Positions 1,308-8,681 of a stretch of 64,000 bases of DNA are shown here, piece by piece. Position 1 is the stretch's first letter, and each line of letters opens with the position of its first letter. The notes beneath the pieces were generated by a model. The model made no database searches, was not told the origin of the DNA, and worked only from the letters and a program-made list of their open reading frames with translations. The stretch covers positions 3,295,001 to 3,359,000 of the forward strand of contig NZ_CP130044.1 in NCBI RefSeq assembly GCF_030505395.1, read 5' to 3'. The stretch comes from Asticcacaulis sp. ZE23SCel15. Lineage in GTDB: Bacteria; Pseudomonadota; Alphaproteobacteria; Caulobacterales; Caulobacteraceae. The position numbers and the translations under genes are program-made.

Positions 1308-1754
1308 ATGAAACATATCATATTTTCAGGTCTCGGATTGGCGGTCGCAGCAATGTCCGGCACGGTTCAGGCTCAGAGCATGTCCTCCACCTCATCCAGC
1401 TTTGAAACCGGCTATGGCCGTGCGCGTGGCTCAGAAGAACGCGCCATTGATCCCTCGACCCGTGACGCCAGCGGCAATCGCGTCATCGTCGACGGCGTCA
1501 TTGTCACCGGTGCGGATAACTCAGTCTATGCCTATGGCCGCGCCTCCGGGGCTGCCGATGCCTATTCCGGCGCGGGTGCCATCGGTGGAGCTTCCGCCAT
1601 CGGCAACAATCTCTCGGTCGTGGTCAGCGGCAATTACAACACCGTCATGATCAATTCGACCCAAATCAATAACGGCAATGTCACCGCCAATGCCGGAACC
1701 AACACGGCCACGGCCGGTGCAGATATCACAGGAACTCTTTCTAATGGCTTCTAA
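1308..1754 (+). CDS. hfaA: Holdfast anchor protein HfaA, secreted, curlin-like
   Basis: A 148-residue protein with a signal peptide ending near VQAQ (residues 20-23). The mature part is rich in Asn, Gly, Ala and Ser with the segment QINNGNVTANAG near the C-terminus, resembling the low-complexity strands of curlin-type subunits. In Caulobacter, HfaA forms SDS-resistant multimers at the stalked pole and helps anchor the polysaccharide holdfast to the cell. The identification rests on this composition together with the CsgG-like lipoprotein gene (hfaB) that overlaps its 3' end and the hfaD-like gene after it. The GGAGCG ribosome-binding site upstream of 1308 supports the start. Confidence 0.85.
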   Translation: MKHIIFSGLGLAVAAMSGTVQAQSMSSTSSSFETGYGRARGSEERAIDPSTRDASGNRVIVDGVIVTGADNSVYAYGRASGAADAYSGAGAIGGASAIGNNLSVVVSGNYNTVMINSTQINNGNVTANAGTNTATAGADITGTLSNGF

Positions 1755-2862
1755 TATGAAACGTAACCTGACGCGCACCGCGGCCCTTATCGCCGCCGCC
1801 GCGACCTTATCTGGCTGCGTATCGCCTGTGGCGGGCCCGAGCGGCATCTATGCCAAACCGATCGGTAATGCGCCGGTCACCGCCAACCCGACCGCCTATT
1901 CGGACGCTCTGGTCTGCCTGAGTTCTTACGCTCGCGCGCATCGTCTGGCCTCGCCGCGCATGGCCGTGGGCCGTATCTCGGACTACACAGGCAAGGTTGA
2001 GTACGAAGGCGGTCGCAAGATCACCCAGGGTGCCTCGCTCATGGCTATGACAGCCCTTGCCAAGGCCGGTGCCCGTCAAGTTGAGCGCTTTGATACCTCG
2101 GTTTCCGAACTTGAACTGAAATATGCCAATAATAAGCTTATCACCGACGCCCCGATGTCGGACCCGACGGTGGCCGGTGAATACCGTAAGATCATGGCCG
2201 GTCAGATCGCCGGTTCTGATTTTCATATTGTTGGCGGCATTACTGAGTTAAACTACAATATACGCTCCAGCGGCCTTGACGCCTATGTCGGTGACGCCGA
2301 TGCGCGCGACACCAAGGGCATTTTGAATGCCCGTCTGTATGTGATGAACGTCGCCCTTGACCTGCGTCTGGTCGATACCCGCACGCTCGAAGTCGTCGAT
2401 GTCATTTCCTATCAAAAGCAGATCATCGGCCGTGAGATCAAGGCCGGGGTGTTTGACTTCTTCAACGGCAATATCTTTGACATTTCCGCCGGCGAAGGTG
2501 GACTTGAGCCGATGCAACTGGCTGTGCGCGCCCTGATTGAGCGCGCCACGCTTGAGTTCATGACCAACCTTTACGGTGCCGCAGGCCCCGAAGTGTGCCT
2601 GAGCCCGAAAGACGATTTCCTTAACTATAACGCCACGACGGGTGCCACGGGTGGTTTCACCCCGGCCTATAATAATCTGGAGACTAACAATGCCGGCACT
2701 CGCGAAGATCCTCAGCGCTGGCGCAAGGTTGGCCGCGTTGCCGAAGATGACACACGCCAGACTACAGACACACCAAAGGATAAACCCCATGCGACCAAGC
2801 CTGATCACGATCATGACCAGCGTGATGGCGATAAGTGCTGTCGCGTGGTCTCCCGCTACTAG
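1744..2862 (+). CDS. hfaB: Holdfast anchor lipoprotein HfaB, CsgG-like outer-membrane secretin
   Basis: A 372-residue lipoprotein. The ATG at 1744 follows an AGGA box and overlaps the end of hfaA by 11 bases; a further ATG at 1756 is also possible. The N-terminus gives a lipobox LSGC about 25 residues in, followed by a CsgG/HfaB-type domain with segments such as SPRMAVGRISDYTGK, MTALAKAGARQVERF and DLRLVDTRTLEV. In curli systems CsgG forms the outer-membrane export pore; Caulobacter HfaB is needed for export and stability of HfaA and HfaD. The last roughly 25 codons overlap hfaD and have an odd charged composition (HDHDQRDGDKCC), so the true end could be earlier if a base has been misread there. 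Confidence 0.88.
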   Translation: MASNMKRNLTRTAALIAAAATLSGCVSPVAGPSGIYAKPIGNAPVTANPTAYSDALVCLSSYARAHRLASPRMAVGRISDYTGKVEYEGGRKITQGASLMAMTALAKAGARQVERFDTSVSELELKYANNKLITDAPMSDPTVAGEYRKIMAGQIAGSDFHIVGGITELNYNIRSSGLDAYVGDADARDTKGILNARLYVMNVALDLRLVDTRTLEVVDVISYQKQIIGREIKAGVFDFFNGNIFDISAGEGGLEPMQLAVRALIERATLEFMTNLYGAAGPEVCLSPKDDFLNYNATTGATGGFTPAYNNLETNNAGTREDPQRWRKVGRVAEDDTRQTTDTPKDKPHATKPDHDHDQRDGDKCCRVVSRY

Positions 2863-4108
2863 TCAGGACTATAATGTCACCGTGCCCGATGCCGACGCGA
2901 CGCAGGCCGCCTGCCCGCTGACCAATGGGATGCGCGTGTGCACCAATAGCCAGAACAATACCGGCACTATAAACGCGCCAAACTATGTCAGCCACTACAT
3001 TGCTGATGGCTTGGTGAGTATGCGCAACTATGCCACCGGCAACCGTATGGATGGTGGCAATGTACAGGTTGACGCCACTCTAAACTCGGCACAGAGCAAT
3101 TCCGGAAATATCGAAGCTGACGCGCACCTGCACAGTCAAGCGGTAGCTGGCGAAACGGGTAAATCGGTTGGCACAGGCGTCTATATGGATACTCAGGCCG
3201 TCGCCAATTCGGGCAGCTTTTCTGCCATTCAGGGCGAACTGACGACGACGATCAACCAAACCTCGACCGCCGATCATGTCTATGCCGACAGTGAGATCGA
3301 AGCCCCCAACGGGGCTATCTATTCCAGCGGCGAAGTGCAAACGACGGCCATCGCCAACCATCAGGAATTTGGCGCGACTGAGGCCCGGATTGTATCGAAC
3401 ACCACCCAGACTTCAAACACAGATGTGCGGGCACGGACCACGACGTCGGTGCAATACTCGCCTTCGCCCAACCTTTATGCGTCGAACGCCTACAACAACT
3501 ATTTTCAGGCTAATGGCGATGATCGCGGCTCACAGCTTCATCAGGTGACCCAAACCACCAGTGCGGCTACCCGCACCGAAGCCTACAGCGATGCGTCAGG
3601 CACGAATCTGTGGGACGTGGCAGCCACCTCCAATGCCGTCGCCAACACGGTCAATGTCGGCAATACCGGCGGATCGATGGTTGTGCGTGCGGATCAGACC
3701 AACGCCAACGATGTGGTTCTGGCTGACGCGCGCATTCTGGCTACCCAGTACGGCACAGCCACCGCCACCGCCTCCAGCACCGGTAACCTGCTGATCGCGG
3801 GCAATAACGATAAGTATGTTGAAATCGACAACAACCAGCTCAATTCCGGCGGCGTTCAGGCCAGCGCCGAATTTATCGGACGCGACGGCTATGATGCCTA
3901 TCTGGAAACCGATGCCACCGGCAACTCGGCCATGGGCTATGCTTGCGGGGCGTGTGAGCCGAACATGAGCGTCAATAATAATCAGGTCAATAATGGCGAT
4001 GTGACGGCCACCAACACCGTCAATATCACCGGCACGGGCCGCTCCGTTGTCTCGGTCGCCCGCGCCACCGGCAACACCGCGACCTATTACACATCGGGTA
4101 ATCCGTAA
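2789..4108 (+). CDS. hfaD: Holdfast anchor/adhesin protein HfaD
   Basis: A 439-residue secreted protein. I chose the ATG at 2789 because an AAAGGA box lies 8 bases upstream and the N-terminus (MRPSLITIMTSVMAISAVAW, then SPATSQ) is a normal signal peptide. The mature chain is Asn/Thr/Ala/Ser-rich with repeated units of the form N-x-G-x-V-x-A: NSGNIEADA, NSGGVQASA, NNGDVTATN. The last is nearly the same as NNGNVTANA in HfaA. In Caulobacter HfaD is a surface-exposed, multimerising anchor protein exported through HfaB. It is the third gene of the operon and starts 74 bases inside the hfaB reading frame. Confidence 0.85.
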   Translation: MRPSLITIMTSVMAISAVAWSPATSQDYNVTVPDADATQAACPLTNGMRVCTNSQNNTGTINAPNYVSHYIADGLVSMRNYATGNRMDGGNVQVDATLNSAQSNSGNIEADAHLHSQAVAGETGKSVGTGVYMDTQAVANSGSFSAIQGELTTTINQTSTADHVYADSEIEAPNGAIYSSGEVQTTAIANHQEFGATEARIVSNTTQTSNTDVRARTTTSVQYSPSPNLYASNAYNNYFQANGDDRGSQLHQVTQTTSAATRTEAYSDASGTNLWDVAATSNAVANTVNVGNTGGSMVVRADQTNANDVVLADARILATQYGTATATASSTGNLLIAGNNDKYVEIDNNQLNSGGVQASAEFIGRDGYDAYLETDATGNSAMGYACGACEPNMSVNNNQVNNGDVTATNTVNITGTGRSVVSVARATGNTATYYTSGNP

Positions 4109-4136: not shown

Positions 4137-4262
4137 TTAGAACCTCCCCTAATTTTAGGGGAGGATACCCCCGAGGGGGGGGGTGGGGTTAAACCCGCTG
4201 AAAATAACCCCACCTCCGGCCCTGCGGGCCTCCTCCTCTCCTAATTTTAGGGGAGGTTCTAA
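4137..4262. repeat. 126-bp composite palindromic element
   Basis: The element is bounded by perfect 16-base inverted ends, TTAGAACCTCCCCTAA at 4137-4152 and its reverse complement at 4247-4262. Each end contains a second, smaller palindrome (CCTCCCCTAA-TT-TTAGGGGAGG at the left, one mismatch at the right). An inner pair GGTGGGGTTA / TAACCCCACC lies in between, with a run of nine or ten G's. The whole can fold into a long branched hairpin. It lies between hfaD and the M16 gene and has no coding potential. It looks like a small non-autonomous (MITE- or REP-like) element and may also stop transcription leaving hfaD. No other copy is present in this window. Confidence 0.75.
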
Positions 4263-4331
4263 GAAAACGAACCGAAGATTACATTTTCGTAATTAGCCGC
4301 TCAACGCCTTTTCAAAACCACGAACATAATA

Positions 4332-4368
4332 CAGGGTCGCCTTCATCTAAATCATGAAGGCGACCCTG
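4332..4368 (+). promoter_or_regulatory. Perfect 15-bp hairpin enclosing the start region of the M16 gene
   Basis: CAGGGTCGCCTTCAT (4332-4346) and ATGAAGGCGACCCTG (4354-4368) are exact reverse complements separated by the 7-base loop CTAAATC. The 3' arm contains both a potential ATG (4354) and the only good Shine-Dalgarno-like sequence, GAAGG (4356-4360), which sits 8 bases before the next in-frame ATG at 4369. If transcribed, the ribosome-binding site would be buried in a stable stem. This suggests translational control, though a terminator-like role for upstream transcripts is also possible. Confidence 0.6.
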
Positions 4369-7242
4369 ATGCTTTTGCGCAAAACCCGCGGAATTTTTGT
4401 CTTTTCTCTGGCCGTGGCTATGTCCACAACGGCACTGACCACAGCGCTTGCCCCGGTGGCGGTTCAGGCGCAAGCCGTAAAAGCCAATCCGCCAGTTGCG
4501 TTTGCCCAAACCAAAAGCGATCTCACCCCCGATCCCGCCGCCCGTTTCGGCAAACTGCCCAACGGCATGACCTATGTGATCTATAAGAACGCCACCCCTC
4601 CGGGTACGGCAGCGGTGCGCCTGCGCTTTGATGCCGGATCGCTGATGGAAACCGATGCCCAGCAAGGGTTAGCGCACTTTCTTGAGCATATGGTCTTCAA
4701 CGGTTCAAAGAACGTGCCCGAAGGTGAGATGGTCAAAATCTTAGAGCGTCACGGCTTGAAATTCGGCCCGGACACCAACGCCTATACCTCGTTCGATGAG
4801 ACGGTCTATATGCTGGACCTGCCGAAGGTCGACCCTGAAATTGTCGACACCGCCCTGATGCTGATGCGCGAAACCGCCAGCAACCTGCTGCTTGATCCAA
4901 AGGCCATTGAGGCTGAGCGCGGGGTAATCTTAGGCGAAGAACGCGCCCGCGCGTCGCCAGGGATGCGCGCCTATATCGCCTATGCCAAGGCAGCCTTTGC
5001 GGGCCAGCCCTACCCTGAGCGCCTGCCCATTGGTCAGGTCGAGGTGATTAAAACCGCTCCGGCTCAGGCTTTTGTCGATTTCTACAATGATTTCTACCGG
5101 CCGGAATATGCTACGCTGGTCATCGTCGGCGATATCAATCCCGATAAGATCGAGGCCAAGATCAAGGCTAAATTCGGTGACTGGCAGGGCAAACCCCAGA
5201 CTAAGAACGCCCTGACCAACTTCGGCACCTATGCCAACAAAGGCCAGCGCGTTCACGCCTATGCCGAGCCCGGCCTGCCCAATTCGCTGTCGGTGTCGTG
5301 GTTCAAACCCTTCGACGGCAGCGTGGAAACTGAGGTCAGCGATTATGAAGACACCCTCGACAATATCATCAGTGCCATTGTGAACCTGCGGCTGGAACGC
5401 CAGTCGAAAGCCCCGGAAACCCAGTTCGCGGCTGCGAGCTTCGGTAACGGCAGCGTCAACAAAACCGCCGAAACCTATAGTCTGAGCATCTCTCCCAAGC
5501 CGGGGCAGGACAAGGCCGCATTGGAACAGGCCCTGATGACCCTGCGTCAGTTTCAGGCTTACGGCGTCTCTCAGGCCGAACTTGACCGCGTTCTGACCGA
5601 ATTTGCTACCGGCCTTGATGCCGCCGCCAAGGGTGAAAAAACCCGCAACACAGGCGCGATCGCCGGTCAGATCATTGGCACTCTGGGCGACAATGAGGTG
5701 CTGACCTCCCCGACCCAAAACCTCGCCTTTTTTAATAAAATCAAATCCCGTCTGACGCTTGAGGCTATCAATGCCCGCATCAAGGCACTGGATCTGGGCG
5801 ACGGCCCGCTGATTGCCCGTCAGGGCTCGGATGCGGCCAAATTCGATCAGGCCGCCATTCAGGCCACCTACCAGACCCTGATGGCGCAAGCGGTCGTTGA
5901 GCCGTTGGCGATTAATAAAAAGCCCTGGCCCTATGAACAGTTCGGCACGCCGTCAAAGGTCGTCAAGACCGAAACCCTGGCTGACCTTGGCGTCACCCAG
6001 GTGACCTATGCCAACGGGCTTAAGGCCAATATCAAGCCGACCACTTTCAAGGATAATGAAATTCTGGTCACGGTCCGCTTTGCGGGCGGTCTGCAAACCA
6101 TCGCCCCCGGCTCAAGTGCGCCAGTGTTTGAAGCTTCATCCGCCGGGGTGTTTGAAGGCGGCCTTGGCAAGCTTGAGGCCGAAGAGATCAAAGAAACTCT
6201 GGCCGGCAAGATCTACGGCCTCAGCTACAATATCGGCGAGGATTCCGCGACCTTAAGCGGCGGCACCACCAAGGACGACCTGACCACCCAGATGCAGGTT
6301 TTGATGGCCTTTACGACCGATACGGCCTTCCGCGCCGATGCGTTTGAGCGCCTGAAAGCCTTTGTGCCGAACTATTATACCCAGCTACAGTCCAGCCCCA
6401 ACAGCGTTTTCAGCGTCAAGGCCCCACGGGTCATTCGCTCCGGCGATGACCGTTTCGGCATCCCGACCCAGGATGAATTCCTGAAAACGAGCAATGATGA
6501 GGTCAAGGCCTTTACCCAGACCCTGCTGATGAAATCACCGGTCGAGATTACCTTTGTCGGCTCGATCACCGTCGAAGAGGCCTTGAAGCAGGTTGACGCG
6601 ACCTTTGCGACCCTTGCCCCGCGTAAAACTTTGCCGGTCGCACCCAAAGGTAATGTGGTGAAATTCCCGACCACGAACCTGCATCAGGTCTTTACCCATA
6701 AGGGCCGCGAAGACCAGAACCTGTCCTATATTGCCTTCCCGACCACCGATTTCTTCGCCAGCACCCAGACCGCACGCGGCCTTGAACTGCTGTCCGAAGT
6801 CATGACCCTGCGCCTGATCGAGGAAATCCGCGAAAAACAAGGCGCGTCCTATGGCTCGTCCGCCTCTTCCATCGCGTCCAATTCTTTCAAGGGTTTTGGC
6901 TATATCGGCGCCTCAGCCACCGTCAAACCCGATCAGGATGAAGTATTTTATACCTCGGTCATGGCCATAGTGGACGACCTGAAAACCAAGGGCGTCACTG
7001 AGGACGAACTGTTGCGGGCCAGAAAGCCCGTGCTCGACAAATACGAGGTCACCCTGAAAACCAACGGGTTCTGGGCGGGCGTCCTGCCGGGCTCATCAAC
7101 TGATCCGCGCAAGCTTGAGGCCGTCCGCACCCGTAAGGCCGAGCTGGAAAAAGTCACCGCCGCGGATCTGCAAAAGCTGGCGCAAACCTATCTGGTCAAA
7201 GATAAGGCCTTAAGGCTGCAGGCCAAGCCGGAAGCGAAATAA
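4369..7242 (+). CDS. Secreted M16-family zinc metallopeptidase, double-length
   Basis: A 957-residue protein with a signal peptide ending near AVQAQA. Numbering from 4369, the inverted zinc motif HFLEH lies at about 103-107 and the downstream glutamate region is AERGVILGEERAR, so the N-terminal M16 half keeps the pitrilysin-type active site (HxxEH plus distal Glu). The C-terminal half is a second, inactive M16 domain pair, giving the usual four-domain clam-shell that degrades peptides. The product is probably periplasmic. The start is uncertain: ATG 4354 lacks a ribosome-binding site, while ATG 4369 has GAAGG 8 bases upstream, so I prefer 4369. It appears to be transcribed on its own, after the hfa operon and the palindromic element. 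Confidence 0.92.
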   Translation: MLLRKTRGIFVFSLAVAMSTTALTTALAPVAVQAQAVKANPPVAFAQTKSDLTPDPAARFGKLPNGMTYVIYKNATPPGTAAVRLRFDAGSLMETDAQQGLAHFLEHMVFNGSKNVPEGEMVKILERHGLKFGPDTNAYTSFDETVYMLDLPKVDPEIVDTALMLMRETASNLLLDPKAIEAERGVILGEERARASPGMRAYIAYAKAAFAGQPYPERLPIGQVEVIKTAPAQAFVDFYNDFYRPEYATLVIVGDINPDKIEAKIKAKFGDWQGKPQTKNALTNFGTYANKGQRVHAYAEPGLPNSLSVSWFKPFDGSVETEVSDYEDTLDNIISAIVNLRLERQSKAPETQFAAASFGNGSVNKTAETYSLSISPKPGQDKAALEQALMTLRQFQAYGVSQAELDRVLTEFATGLDAAAKGEKTRNTGAIAGQIIGTLGDNEVLTSPTQNLAFFNKIKSRLTLEAINARIKALDLGDGPLIARQGSDAAKFDQAAIQATYQTLMAQAVVEPLAINKKPWPYEQFGTPSKVVKTETLADLGVTQVTYANGLKANIKPTTFKDNEILVTVRFAGGLQTIAPGSSAPVFEASSAGVFEGGLGKLEAEEIKETLAGKIYGLSYNIGEDSATLSGGTTKDDLTTQMQVLMAFTTDTAFRADAFERLKAFVPNYYTQLQSSPNSVFSVKAPRVIRSGDDRFGIPTQDEFLKTSNDEVKAFTQTLLMKSPVEITFVGSITVEEALKQVDATFATLAPRKTLPVAPKGNVVKFPTTNLHQVFTHKGREDQNLSYIAFPTTDFFASTQTARGLELLSEVMTLRLIEEIREKQGASYGSSASSIASNSFKGFGYIGASATVKPDQDEVFYTSVMAIVDDLKTKGVTEDELLRARKPVLDKYEVTLKTNGFWAGVLPGSSTDPRKLEAVRTRKAELEKVTAADLQKLAQTYLVKDKALRLQAKPEAK

Positions 7243-7907: not shown

Positions 7908-8681
7908 TTACTGAACAAACCCGCCGACGCCGCCATCAAACACCATGTTCGATGAGGAGCTGTAGGCTGATTTTTTCTCGACCTGACGGCTGGCCATATA
8001 GGTTTCGGTTGTTGTGATCGTCAGAATTTTCACACCTGCACCAAACCGGCGCAGTAATGAGCGCTCATTACAGGCGCGCGCGGCCATTTGACGACGGCAC
8101 TCGATCTTGCCGCCTTCATGCCACAGGGCATCGTTTTTACCGCAGTCATAGCTCTTGCCATCGGCAATATATTGCAGGCGCGTGCCAGCGATGCAGCGAT
8201 ATAACTCACCGCGATAATCGCCCTTGACGTCCTTATAACCAAAGACCTGAGAGGCCGGATGGGGCACGCCCTTATCGTCGATGCACGACGCCTGAAGCGT
8301 GACCGTCTTGGTCAGGGTCCGCGACGCCTGGTAGGCCTCAGCGGCCATTTCACTGCCGGTTTCGACATTGAGACCGCCGGTGACCACCGGAATACCTTGC
8401 GCCTGCGACCAGTTGCCATAGCCACCGCCGTAATAGACCGAGCCGGTGGCCCCACCCGATGCCGACGCACTGGCCGACGCGTGGGCACTGGCATAGGCCG
8501 AGGCATGGGCGCTGACATGCGGCATGGACGGCTTTGACGGATGCGACGGCGGGGTGGGCGGCGGCGGCGGTGCGCAGCCGGAATTGCATTGTGCCGAAGC
8601 TTCACCGGCCGCGAGCGATCCGATCAACATACCTAAAGCGATAAGTGAGCCGTGACCGATAAGAGATTTATTTGCGCGCAT
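7908..8681 (-). CDS. Secreted protein with Pro-rich and His/Ala/Ser low-complexity region
   Basis: A 257-residue protein of unknown function. Signal peptide about 1-30 (ending GEASAQ), then CNSGC, a proline run (PPPPPTPPSHPSKPS), and an alternating Ala/Ser tract with His and Tyr (AHASAYASAHASASASAS) leading into a Gly/Tyr-rich stretch. The C-terminal two thirds is an ordinary folded domain with several cysteines (C132, C162, C178, C194, C203 approximately) that probably pair in the periplasm. The low-complexity arm could span or bind the cell wall. It is transcribed divergently from the PAS-like gene. No catalytic motif is visible. Confidence 0.7.
   Translation of the reverse strand: MRANKSLIGHGSLIALGMLIGSLAAGEASAQCNSGCAPPPPPTPPSHPSKPSMPHVSAHASAYASAHASASASASGGATGSVYYGGGYGNWSQAQGIPVVTGGLNVETGSEMAAEAYQASRTLTKTVTLQASCIDDKGVPHPASQVFGYKDVKGDYRGELYRCIAGTRLQYIADGKSYDCGKNDALWHEGGKIECRRQMAARACNERSLLRRFGAGVKILTITTTETYMASRQVEKKSAYSSSSNMVFDGGVGGFVQ

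What the first reader, a model, noticed from the sequence alone, without database searches (positions are those of the whole stretch)
4332..4369. Perfect hairpin that buries the ribosome-binding site of the M16 peptidase gene
A 15-bp exact stem with a 7-base loop spans 4332-4368. The 3' arm contains the first ATG and the GAAGG box that serves the next ATG at 4369. In the mRNA the translation start would be closed, which suggests control by temperature, an RNA-binding factor or coupling to upstream translation.
Basis: partly seen in the sequence, partly recalled or inferred. Interest (0 to 1): 0.5.

Follow-up and report, generated by a model that had tools for sequence, protein, structure and literature searches.

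The report
Promoter-encoded hairpin hiding a ribosome-binding site
In some Asticcacaulis bacteria a strong RNA hairpin covers the ribosome-binding site of a peptidase gene, but its left half seems to be part of that gene's own promoter, so it probably forms only in messages running in from the neighbouring holdfast genes and keeps those from making the peptidase.

Summary
The hairpin is real (4332-4346/4354-4368, 15 bp, loop 7) and not chance: 0 of 400 shuffles fold as well; 2 of 361 sampled genes of this genome have so long a stem over the SD. It precedes the same M16 gene in 13 of 23 readable Asticcacaulis leaders (z about -5.5 or lower), with both-sided changes in 4 of 11 pairs, and in 0 of 63 outgroup leaders. 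The start is the second ATG (4369). A thermometer is unlikely (predicted closed at 85 C). The left arm overlaps an ungapped 31-nt block in 23 of 23 leaders that resembles the published Caulobacter RpoD motif and would start transcription at about 4342-4346. The gene's own mRNA would then lack the left arm (opening cost about 7 against 30 kcal/mol), and the stem would form only in RNA entering from hfaABD. Strong stems occur in 13 of 14 genomes with hfaD adjacent and no terminator between, and in 0 of 9 others. This is the phage T4 gene e arrangement, here in a chromosomal gene. The start site is inferred, not measured; other -10 candidates exist, and ten outgroup loci weaken the read-through argument.

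The parts
4332..4346 (+). left arm of the hairpin; its first six bases CAGGGT (4332-4337) are the putative -10 box
   Evidence: pairing; A at block position 26 and T at 30 in 23 of 23 leaders
4347..4353 (+). 7-nt loop
4354..4368 (+). right arm: in-frame upstream ATG (4354), SD GAAGG (4356-4360)
4308..4337 (+). putative own RpoD-type promoter of the M16 gene: CTTT (-35 side, 4308-4311; hexamer 4308-4313), 18-nt spacer, -10 box 4332-4337
   Evidence: motif description in PMC4287350 (passages). No consensus sigma-70 match by the simple scan
4342..4346 (+). predicted transcription start zone of the gene's own mRNA (inference, not measured)
   Evidence: 34-37 nt after the first base of the motif, as published for Caulobacter RpoD; SD accessibility by start position
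4369..7242 (+). M16 (pitrilysin/PqqL-like) zinc peptidase, 957 aa, probable signal peptide (by eye)
   Evidence: searches (PF00675, PF05193; PqqL 6ofs, 9ldy), start by comparison
1308..1754 (+). hfaA
   Evidence: NF037934 E 2e-42
1678..2862 (+). hfaB (open frame; true start probably a little downstream)
   Evidence: NF037935 E 7e-135; CsgG
2642..4108 (+). hfaD (open frame; true start probably downstream), ends 223 nt before the hairpin
   Evidence: NF037936 E 9e-87
4279..4292 (+). imperfectly conserved palindrome TTAC-N6-GTAA upstream of the promoter, possible activator site
   Evidence: read; not tested statistically

Best explanation
The hairpin is a read-through gate. Its left arm is encoded by the -10 region of the M16 gene's own promoter, so mRNA started there (about 4342-4346) lacks the left arm, keeps an accessible SD and is translated. 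Only mRNA that enters from upstream, chiefly from hfaABD, contains both arms; in it the SD is locked in a roughly -28 kcal/mol stem and the peptidase is not translated. Shown here: the stem, its conservation and covariation, the SD placement, the ungapped promoter-like block, the link to hfaD adjacency. Inferred: the start site, the existence of hfa read-through RNA, the loss of translation.
For: (1) Stem z about -5.5 or lower in 13 of 23 leaders with different stem sequences; 4 of 11 pairs changed on both sides, covariation score reached by 0 of 500 shuffles (10 of the 23 leaders). (2) Ungapped 31-nt block CTTT...A26...T30 in 23 of 23 leaders, also those without a stem. Outgroups: CCTTG in 62 of 63 leader regions (19.4 expected in shuffles); A and T at 26/30 in 44 of 60 distinct windows, 53 of 60 allowing 27/31, against 0-7 at other offsets. 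Published Caulobacter RpoD motif: TTG at -35, A/T at -10, first base at -34 to -37 (PMC4287350, passages). (3) Opening the start region costs a median 26.1 kcal/mol in read-through RNA but 8.6 in RNA started at block position 37 (13 strong leaders); outgroup median without stem 8.9. (4) Strong stem in 13 of 14 genomes with hfaD adjacent and no separate terminator, 0 of 9 others (Fisher 1.2e-5, not corrected for kinship). (5) T4 gene e precedent: a late promoter lies in the DNA of the 5' strand of the structure (PMC3014915, passages).
Against: No start site was measured. The window's boxes are poor (CTTTTC, CAGGGT) and the simple scan finds no promoter. In this clade CATAAT at 4325-4330 could serve as -10 and start RNA near 4337, which would still leave the SD in a 10-bp stem (opening 17.7 kcal/mol). 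In Asticcacaulis another A..T pair, at block positions 16/20 (22 of 23), could place the start at the stem's base, leaving the whole stem in the own mRNA; in outgroups it is seen in 2 of 60 windows. Ten outgroup loci have hfaD next to the M16 gene (198-357 nt to the match start) and no terminator by the same scan, and no such stem (9 of the 10 scored; L100 had no usable ATG). G020 is adjacent, without terminator by the strict scan (a looser scan, flagged sites in G020 and also in G016, where it overlaps the promoter block, and G018, inside hfaD) and without strong stem. The 13/14 v 0/9 contrast rests on perhaps three independent changes on the tree. One covariation measure, further pair types, is not above shuffles (463 of 500 as high). 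In the predicted own mRNA of the strong leaders the SD bases are still paired with probability 0.49-0.92, by weak pairings.
Confidence: 0.5

Rival explanations
1. Regulated leader hairpin: the gene's own mRNA starts upstream of 4332, carries the whole stem, and translation is off until a trans-acting RNA or protein, or a cleavage, opens it.
For: Strong SD occlusion and covariation; alternative -10 candidates (A16..T20 in 22 of 23; CATAAT in the window clade); no other strong hit of the model in the searched genus genomes.
Against: Opening cost about 20-30 kcal/mol in the strong leaders demands an active opener, none found; the block that looks most like the promoter, shared with outgroups lacking a stem, overlaps the left arm.
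Confidence: 0.22
2. It is mainly the intrinsic transcription terminator of hfaABD, overlapping the start of the next gene.
For: GC-rich stem, flagged terminator-like in the window and L040; a U run of 3 or more follows the stem in 7 of 13 strong leaders (read); genomes with their own terminator after hfaD (G001, G002, G011, G022) lack a strong stem.
Against: In the window and its three closest relatives the stem is followed by UGAUGC, in G012 by UUAUAC, in G024 by UUAUG. SD placement is kept in the 13, the U run is not. Ten outgroup loci show neither by these scans.
Confidence: 0.16
3. RNA thermometer.
For: SD in a stem next to the start codon.
Against: Perfect 15-bp stem; SD region of G000 predicted 0.93 paired at 85 C (six leaders computed); thermometers are usually imperfect and weaker (recalled).
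Confidence: 0.02
4. DNA palindrome bound by a regulator, RNA pairing incidental, or perfect arms kept by template-switch mutation.
For: Perfect inverted repeat at a promoter.
Against: Arm sequence differs between clades (GGTCGCC v GGCTCCGC) with the SD in the right arm; one-sided bulges in G001/G013.
Confidence: 0.05

Closest known systems
Phage T4 gene e (lysozyme) and I-TevI read-through hairpins (PMC3014915, passages read)
   Same: SD in a stem formed only in longer upstream-started RNA; [quoted passage not shown]
   Different: Chromosomal bacterial gene beside an operon for holdfast anchoring; RpoD-like promoter; start site and repression not measured here
IS10/Tn10 and other transposase genes protected from outside transcription (recalled)
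   Same: RBS of a gene hidden in read-through RNA by an inverted repeat
   Different: No mobile element seen here; the M16 gene has a match in 25 of 25 Asticcacaulis genomes
ROSE/FourU RNA thermometers (recalled)
   Same: SD in a stem
   Different: Far more stable, no mismatches; no Rfam match at gathering score in the window

Membership tests
T4 gene e type read-through-silencing hairpin | SD and/or AUG sequestered in a stem of the long transcript | tested here: met
   (prediction)
T4 gene e type read-through-silencing hairpin | own promoter lies in the DNA of the 5' strand so that own RNA lacks it | tested here: inconclusive
   conserved block with TTG/TTT and A..T boxes overlapping the left arm; not mapped; alternatives exist
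T4 gene e type read-through-silencing hairpin | an upstream transcript reads through | tested here: inconclusive
   hfaABD upstream, no separate terminator found in the window; no RNA data
T4 gene e type read-through-silencing hairpin | translation of long transcript reduced relative to short one | not testable with these tools
   needs reporters
RNA thermometer | stem opens in the physiological temperature range | tested here: not met
   SD region paired 0.99 at 45 C and 0.93 at 85 C in G000 (prediction)
Rfam RNA family | match at gathering score | tested here: not met
   0 matches in 64000 bases
Intrinsic terminator | GC-rich stem followed at once by a U run | tested here: inconclusive

The most novel reading that the evidence does not exclude
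A bacterial chromosomal gene uses its own promoter's -10 region as the silencing strand of an SD-hiding hairpin, so that translation depends on where the message began. The gate arose inside Asticcacaulis, perhaps twice with different sequence (clade I and the G003/G010/G012 group), and decays when the upstream hfa operon moves away or gains its own terminator.
Probability: 0.35. Interest if true: 0.6.

Novelty: new member of a known kind. Interest (0 to 1): 0.42.

Why it matters
If right, it shows a simple way for a bacterium to pack two independently controlled genes head to tail without a terminator: the promoter of the second gene doubles as the strand that silences it in messages from the first. 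It would also warn that SD-burying hairpins found by sequence need the start site before they are called leader switches, and it gives a searchable signature (promoter -10 complementary to the downstream SD).

Tried and rejected
Thermometer: rejected by predicted stability. Coupling to an upstream or short reading frame: no ATG, GTG or TTG starts between 4184 and 4353. Repeat element or regulon: the covariance model R1, built from 10 of the leaders, gives one strong locus (E 3e-10 or better) in each of 12 of 25 genus genomes, 10 of them the sequences it was built from. It misses G003, G010 and G012; other hits are weak (best E 6.6e-4, G001:C6) or the same place on the other strand. Only 150 of about 1200-2150 first candidates were scored per genome. 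In 119 family genomes 18 had a match at E 0.1, 10 of them Asticcacaulis; the 8 others (best E 0.0016) were not examined, and 47 candidates were scored per genome. Use of the first ATG (4354) as the start: read, that ATG is out of frame in G007, G008, G016 and missing in G001, G003, G010, G012, G013. RpoN promoter: spacing judged wrong by eye, not tested further. Alignment A2, with the G003 group, gave a consensus fold of only 2 pairs because the stems differ in register; the 10-row A4 gave 11. A first promoter pattern had a spacing error of mine and found nothing. Redone it gave the M16 site and scattered hits of two mismatches, some upstream of CarD-like and rhodanese-like genes (names by eye). 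A second promoter pattern in 7 genomes hit the M16 site in 4 of them (G068, G109, G113, G136) plus scattered weak hits, no clear regulon.

Rows dropped: G014 and G019 (contig ends cut the leader; 23 of 25 leaders used). G022 is not in the tree (protein piece too short; 22 genus rows). Of 64 outgroup loci, 63 were scored (L100 without a usable ATG); L051 and L109 there have doubtful starts. L051 was left out (63 loci; L061 without CCTTG). The block was picked by requiring CTTT, A26 and T30, but the same columns came out invariant in the unconstrained alignment. The outgroup windows were picked by CCTTG with a preceding G or a GCC-type core, not by the A/T positions. Gene starts of the controls come from a crude caller of mine. 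The SD in each leader is the best GGAGG-like 5-mer at a set distance, so its distance is partly by construction. One search used one HfaD query, that of the window.

Full report
What is there. The window lies in a single-contig genome of 3,774,217 bases. The genus Asticcacaulis is read from the record titles, where A. endophyticus carries a 98% identical orthologue. hfaA, hfaB and hfaD, the holdfast anchor genes (NCBIfam), are followed on the same strand by an M16 zinc peptidase of 957 aa. The stated hairpin, 15 perfect pairs with a 7-base loop, sits exactly at the peptidase start. It is unique in the genome. Of 361 genes sampled from the window and 400 kb of the same genome, 2 have an uninterrupted stem of 15 bp or more over their SD; 28 have an SD paired with probability 0.95 or more.

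Start codon. The orthologues indicate that translation starts at the second ATG, 4369. Read, the upstream ATG is out of frame in G007, G008 and G016 and missing in G001, G003, G010, G012 and G013. The best SD-like 5-mer lies 5-11 nt before the second ATG in the 23 leaders.

Conservation. In 25 of 25 genus genomes the protein has a match, and 23 have a readable leader. Thirteen have a stem with z of about -5.5 or lower against 400 shuffles. G021 has -3.1, G013 -2.4, G001 and G002 -1.7, the other six between -0.8 and 0.1. The stems differ in sequence (CAGGGTCGCCTTCAT and TAAGGGTCGCGTCCAT; TGAAAAGGTCGCCCC and AAGGCTCCGCAG) but hold all or most of the SD in the right arm. In an alignment of 10 leaders not fitted to the structure, 95.3% of cells pair, 4 of 11 pairs change on both sides, and the covariation score exceeds all 500 shuffles and all slid versions; the number of further pair types does not (463 of 500 shuffles as high). 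SD pairing probability averages 0.86 in the 23 leaders against 0.55 in 48 other genes of the window. Outside the genus 0 of 63 scored leaders reach z -3. On the protein tree (22 genus rows) the 12 members of clade I have the stem, 10 strong and 2 bulged and weaker; in the other clade only the G003/G010/G012 branch has a strong one.

Where does the mRNA start? Immediately 5' of the stem, and running into its left arm, is a block of 31 nt aligned without a gap in 23 of 23 leaders, including those without a stem. CTTT at positions 1-4, A at 26 and T at 30 are invariant. The equivalent outgroup block is CTTG...A...T. CCTTG occurs in 62 of 63 outgroup leader regions (19.4 expected in shuffles), and A and T at 26/30 in 44 of 60 distinct windows (53 of 60 allowing 27/31), with 0-7 at other offsets. 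For Caulobacter, Zhou et al. 2015 describe the RpoD motif as TTG at -35 and A/T at -10, its first base 34-37 nt before the start in 93% of 1,666 cases (PMC4287350, passages read). Read this way, the window's -10 box is CAGGGT at 4332-4337, the base of the left arm, and the start falls at 4342-4346, the loop end of the left arm. Such RNA cannot form the stem: opening the start region costs 6.9-7.5 kcal/mol instead of about 30. Over the 13 strong leaders the medians are 8.6 (start at position 37) and 26.1; outgroups without a stem have 8.9.

What the pairing is for. Selection for pairing between the promoter's -10 region and the SD can act only in RNA that begins further upstream. In 13 of 14 genomes where hfaD is the adjacent upstream gene and a strict scan finds no intrinsic terminator between, the stem is strong. 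In the 9 where hfaD is absent or far (G009, G013, G017, G021, G023) or followed by its own terminator (G001, G002, G011, G022) it is weak or absent (Fisher 1.2e-5, not corrected for kinship; perhaps three independent changes). The most economical account is a gate against translation of hfaABD read-through RNA. That is the arrangement described for T4 gene e, where a late promoter lies in the DNA of the 5' strand of the inhibitory stem and RNA started there is well translated (PMC3014915, passages read).

What speaks against it. Ten outgroup loci have hfaD adjacent with no terminator by the same scan and no such stem (9 of the 10 scored), so read-through is tolerated elsewhere. G020 breaks the pattern inside the genus, and a looser terminator scan flagged sites in G016, G018 and G020. 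The window's promoter boxes are weak and not found by a simple scan, and two other -10 candidates would leave part or all of the stem in the own mRNA. Seven of 13 strong stems are followed by three or more U (read), so termination of hfaABD may contribute. No RNA data were available.

Literature. Listings only; passages read in PMC4287350, PMC6707917, PMC4117421, PMC8450116 and PMC3014915. The titles and abstract starts in those listings do not mention this leader; no broader claim of absence is made. In Caulobacter 57% of 5' UTRs are 15-60 nt (PMC4117421, passage), consistent with the predicted 23-27 nt here.

Verdict.

Noticed in passing
4137-4262: A 126-nt foldback (arms with CCTCCCCTAATTTTAGGGGAGG) between hfaD and the promoter, not at that place in the three closest relatives (G005, G018, G008); the exact 22-mer occurs once in this genome.
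   Followed up: partly
4279-4292: Palindrome TTAC-N6-GTAA upstream of the M16 promoter, with variants in many relatives (e.g. TTACGATTTCGTAA, TTAACAAAAGTTAA); possible activator site.
   Followed up: no
4319-4330 equivalents in relatives: Short dyads such as CGCAAACTTGCG or ACAAAACTTTGT between the two promoter boxes in several relatives (read).
   Followed up: no
L020 and L026 leaders: G023 and G017 carry a foldback (CCGAAAAGTGCGGACACTTTTCGG-like) between promoter block and SD, lengthening the predicted leader to about 75-79 nt.
   Followed up: no
7908-8681: Secreted-looking 257-aa protein on the other strand, without Pfam or NCBIfam match; similar C-termini (GGVGGFVQ) are seen by eye beyond the M16 gene in several relatives.
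   Followed up: no
L174:8066: The only other of 361 sampled genes of this genome with a 15-bp-or-longer stem over its SD (GGAGG).
   Followed up: no
L025, L026 (G022, G017): The M16 orthologue matches in two separate pieces in G017 and G022, as if the frame were broken.
   Followed up: no
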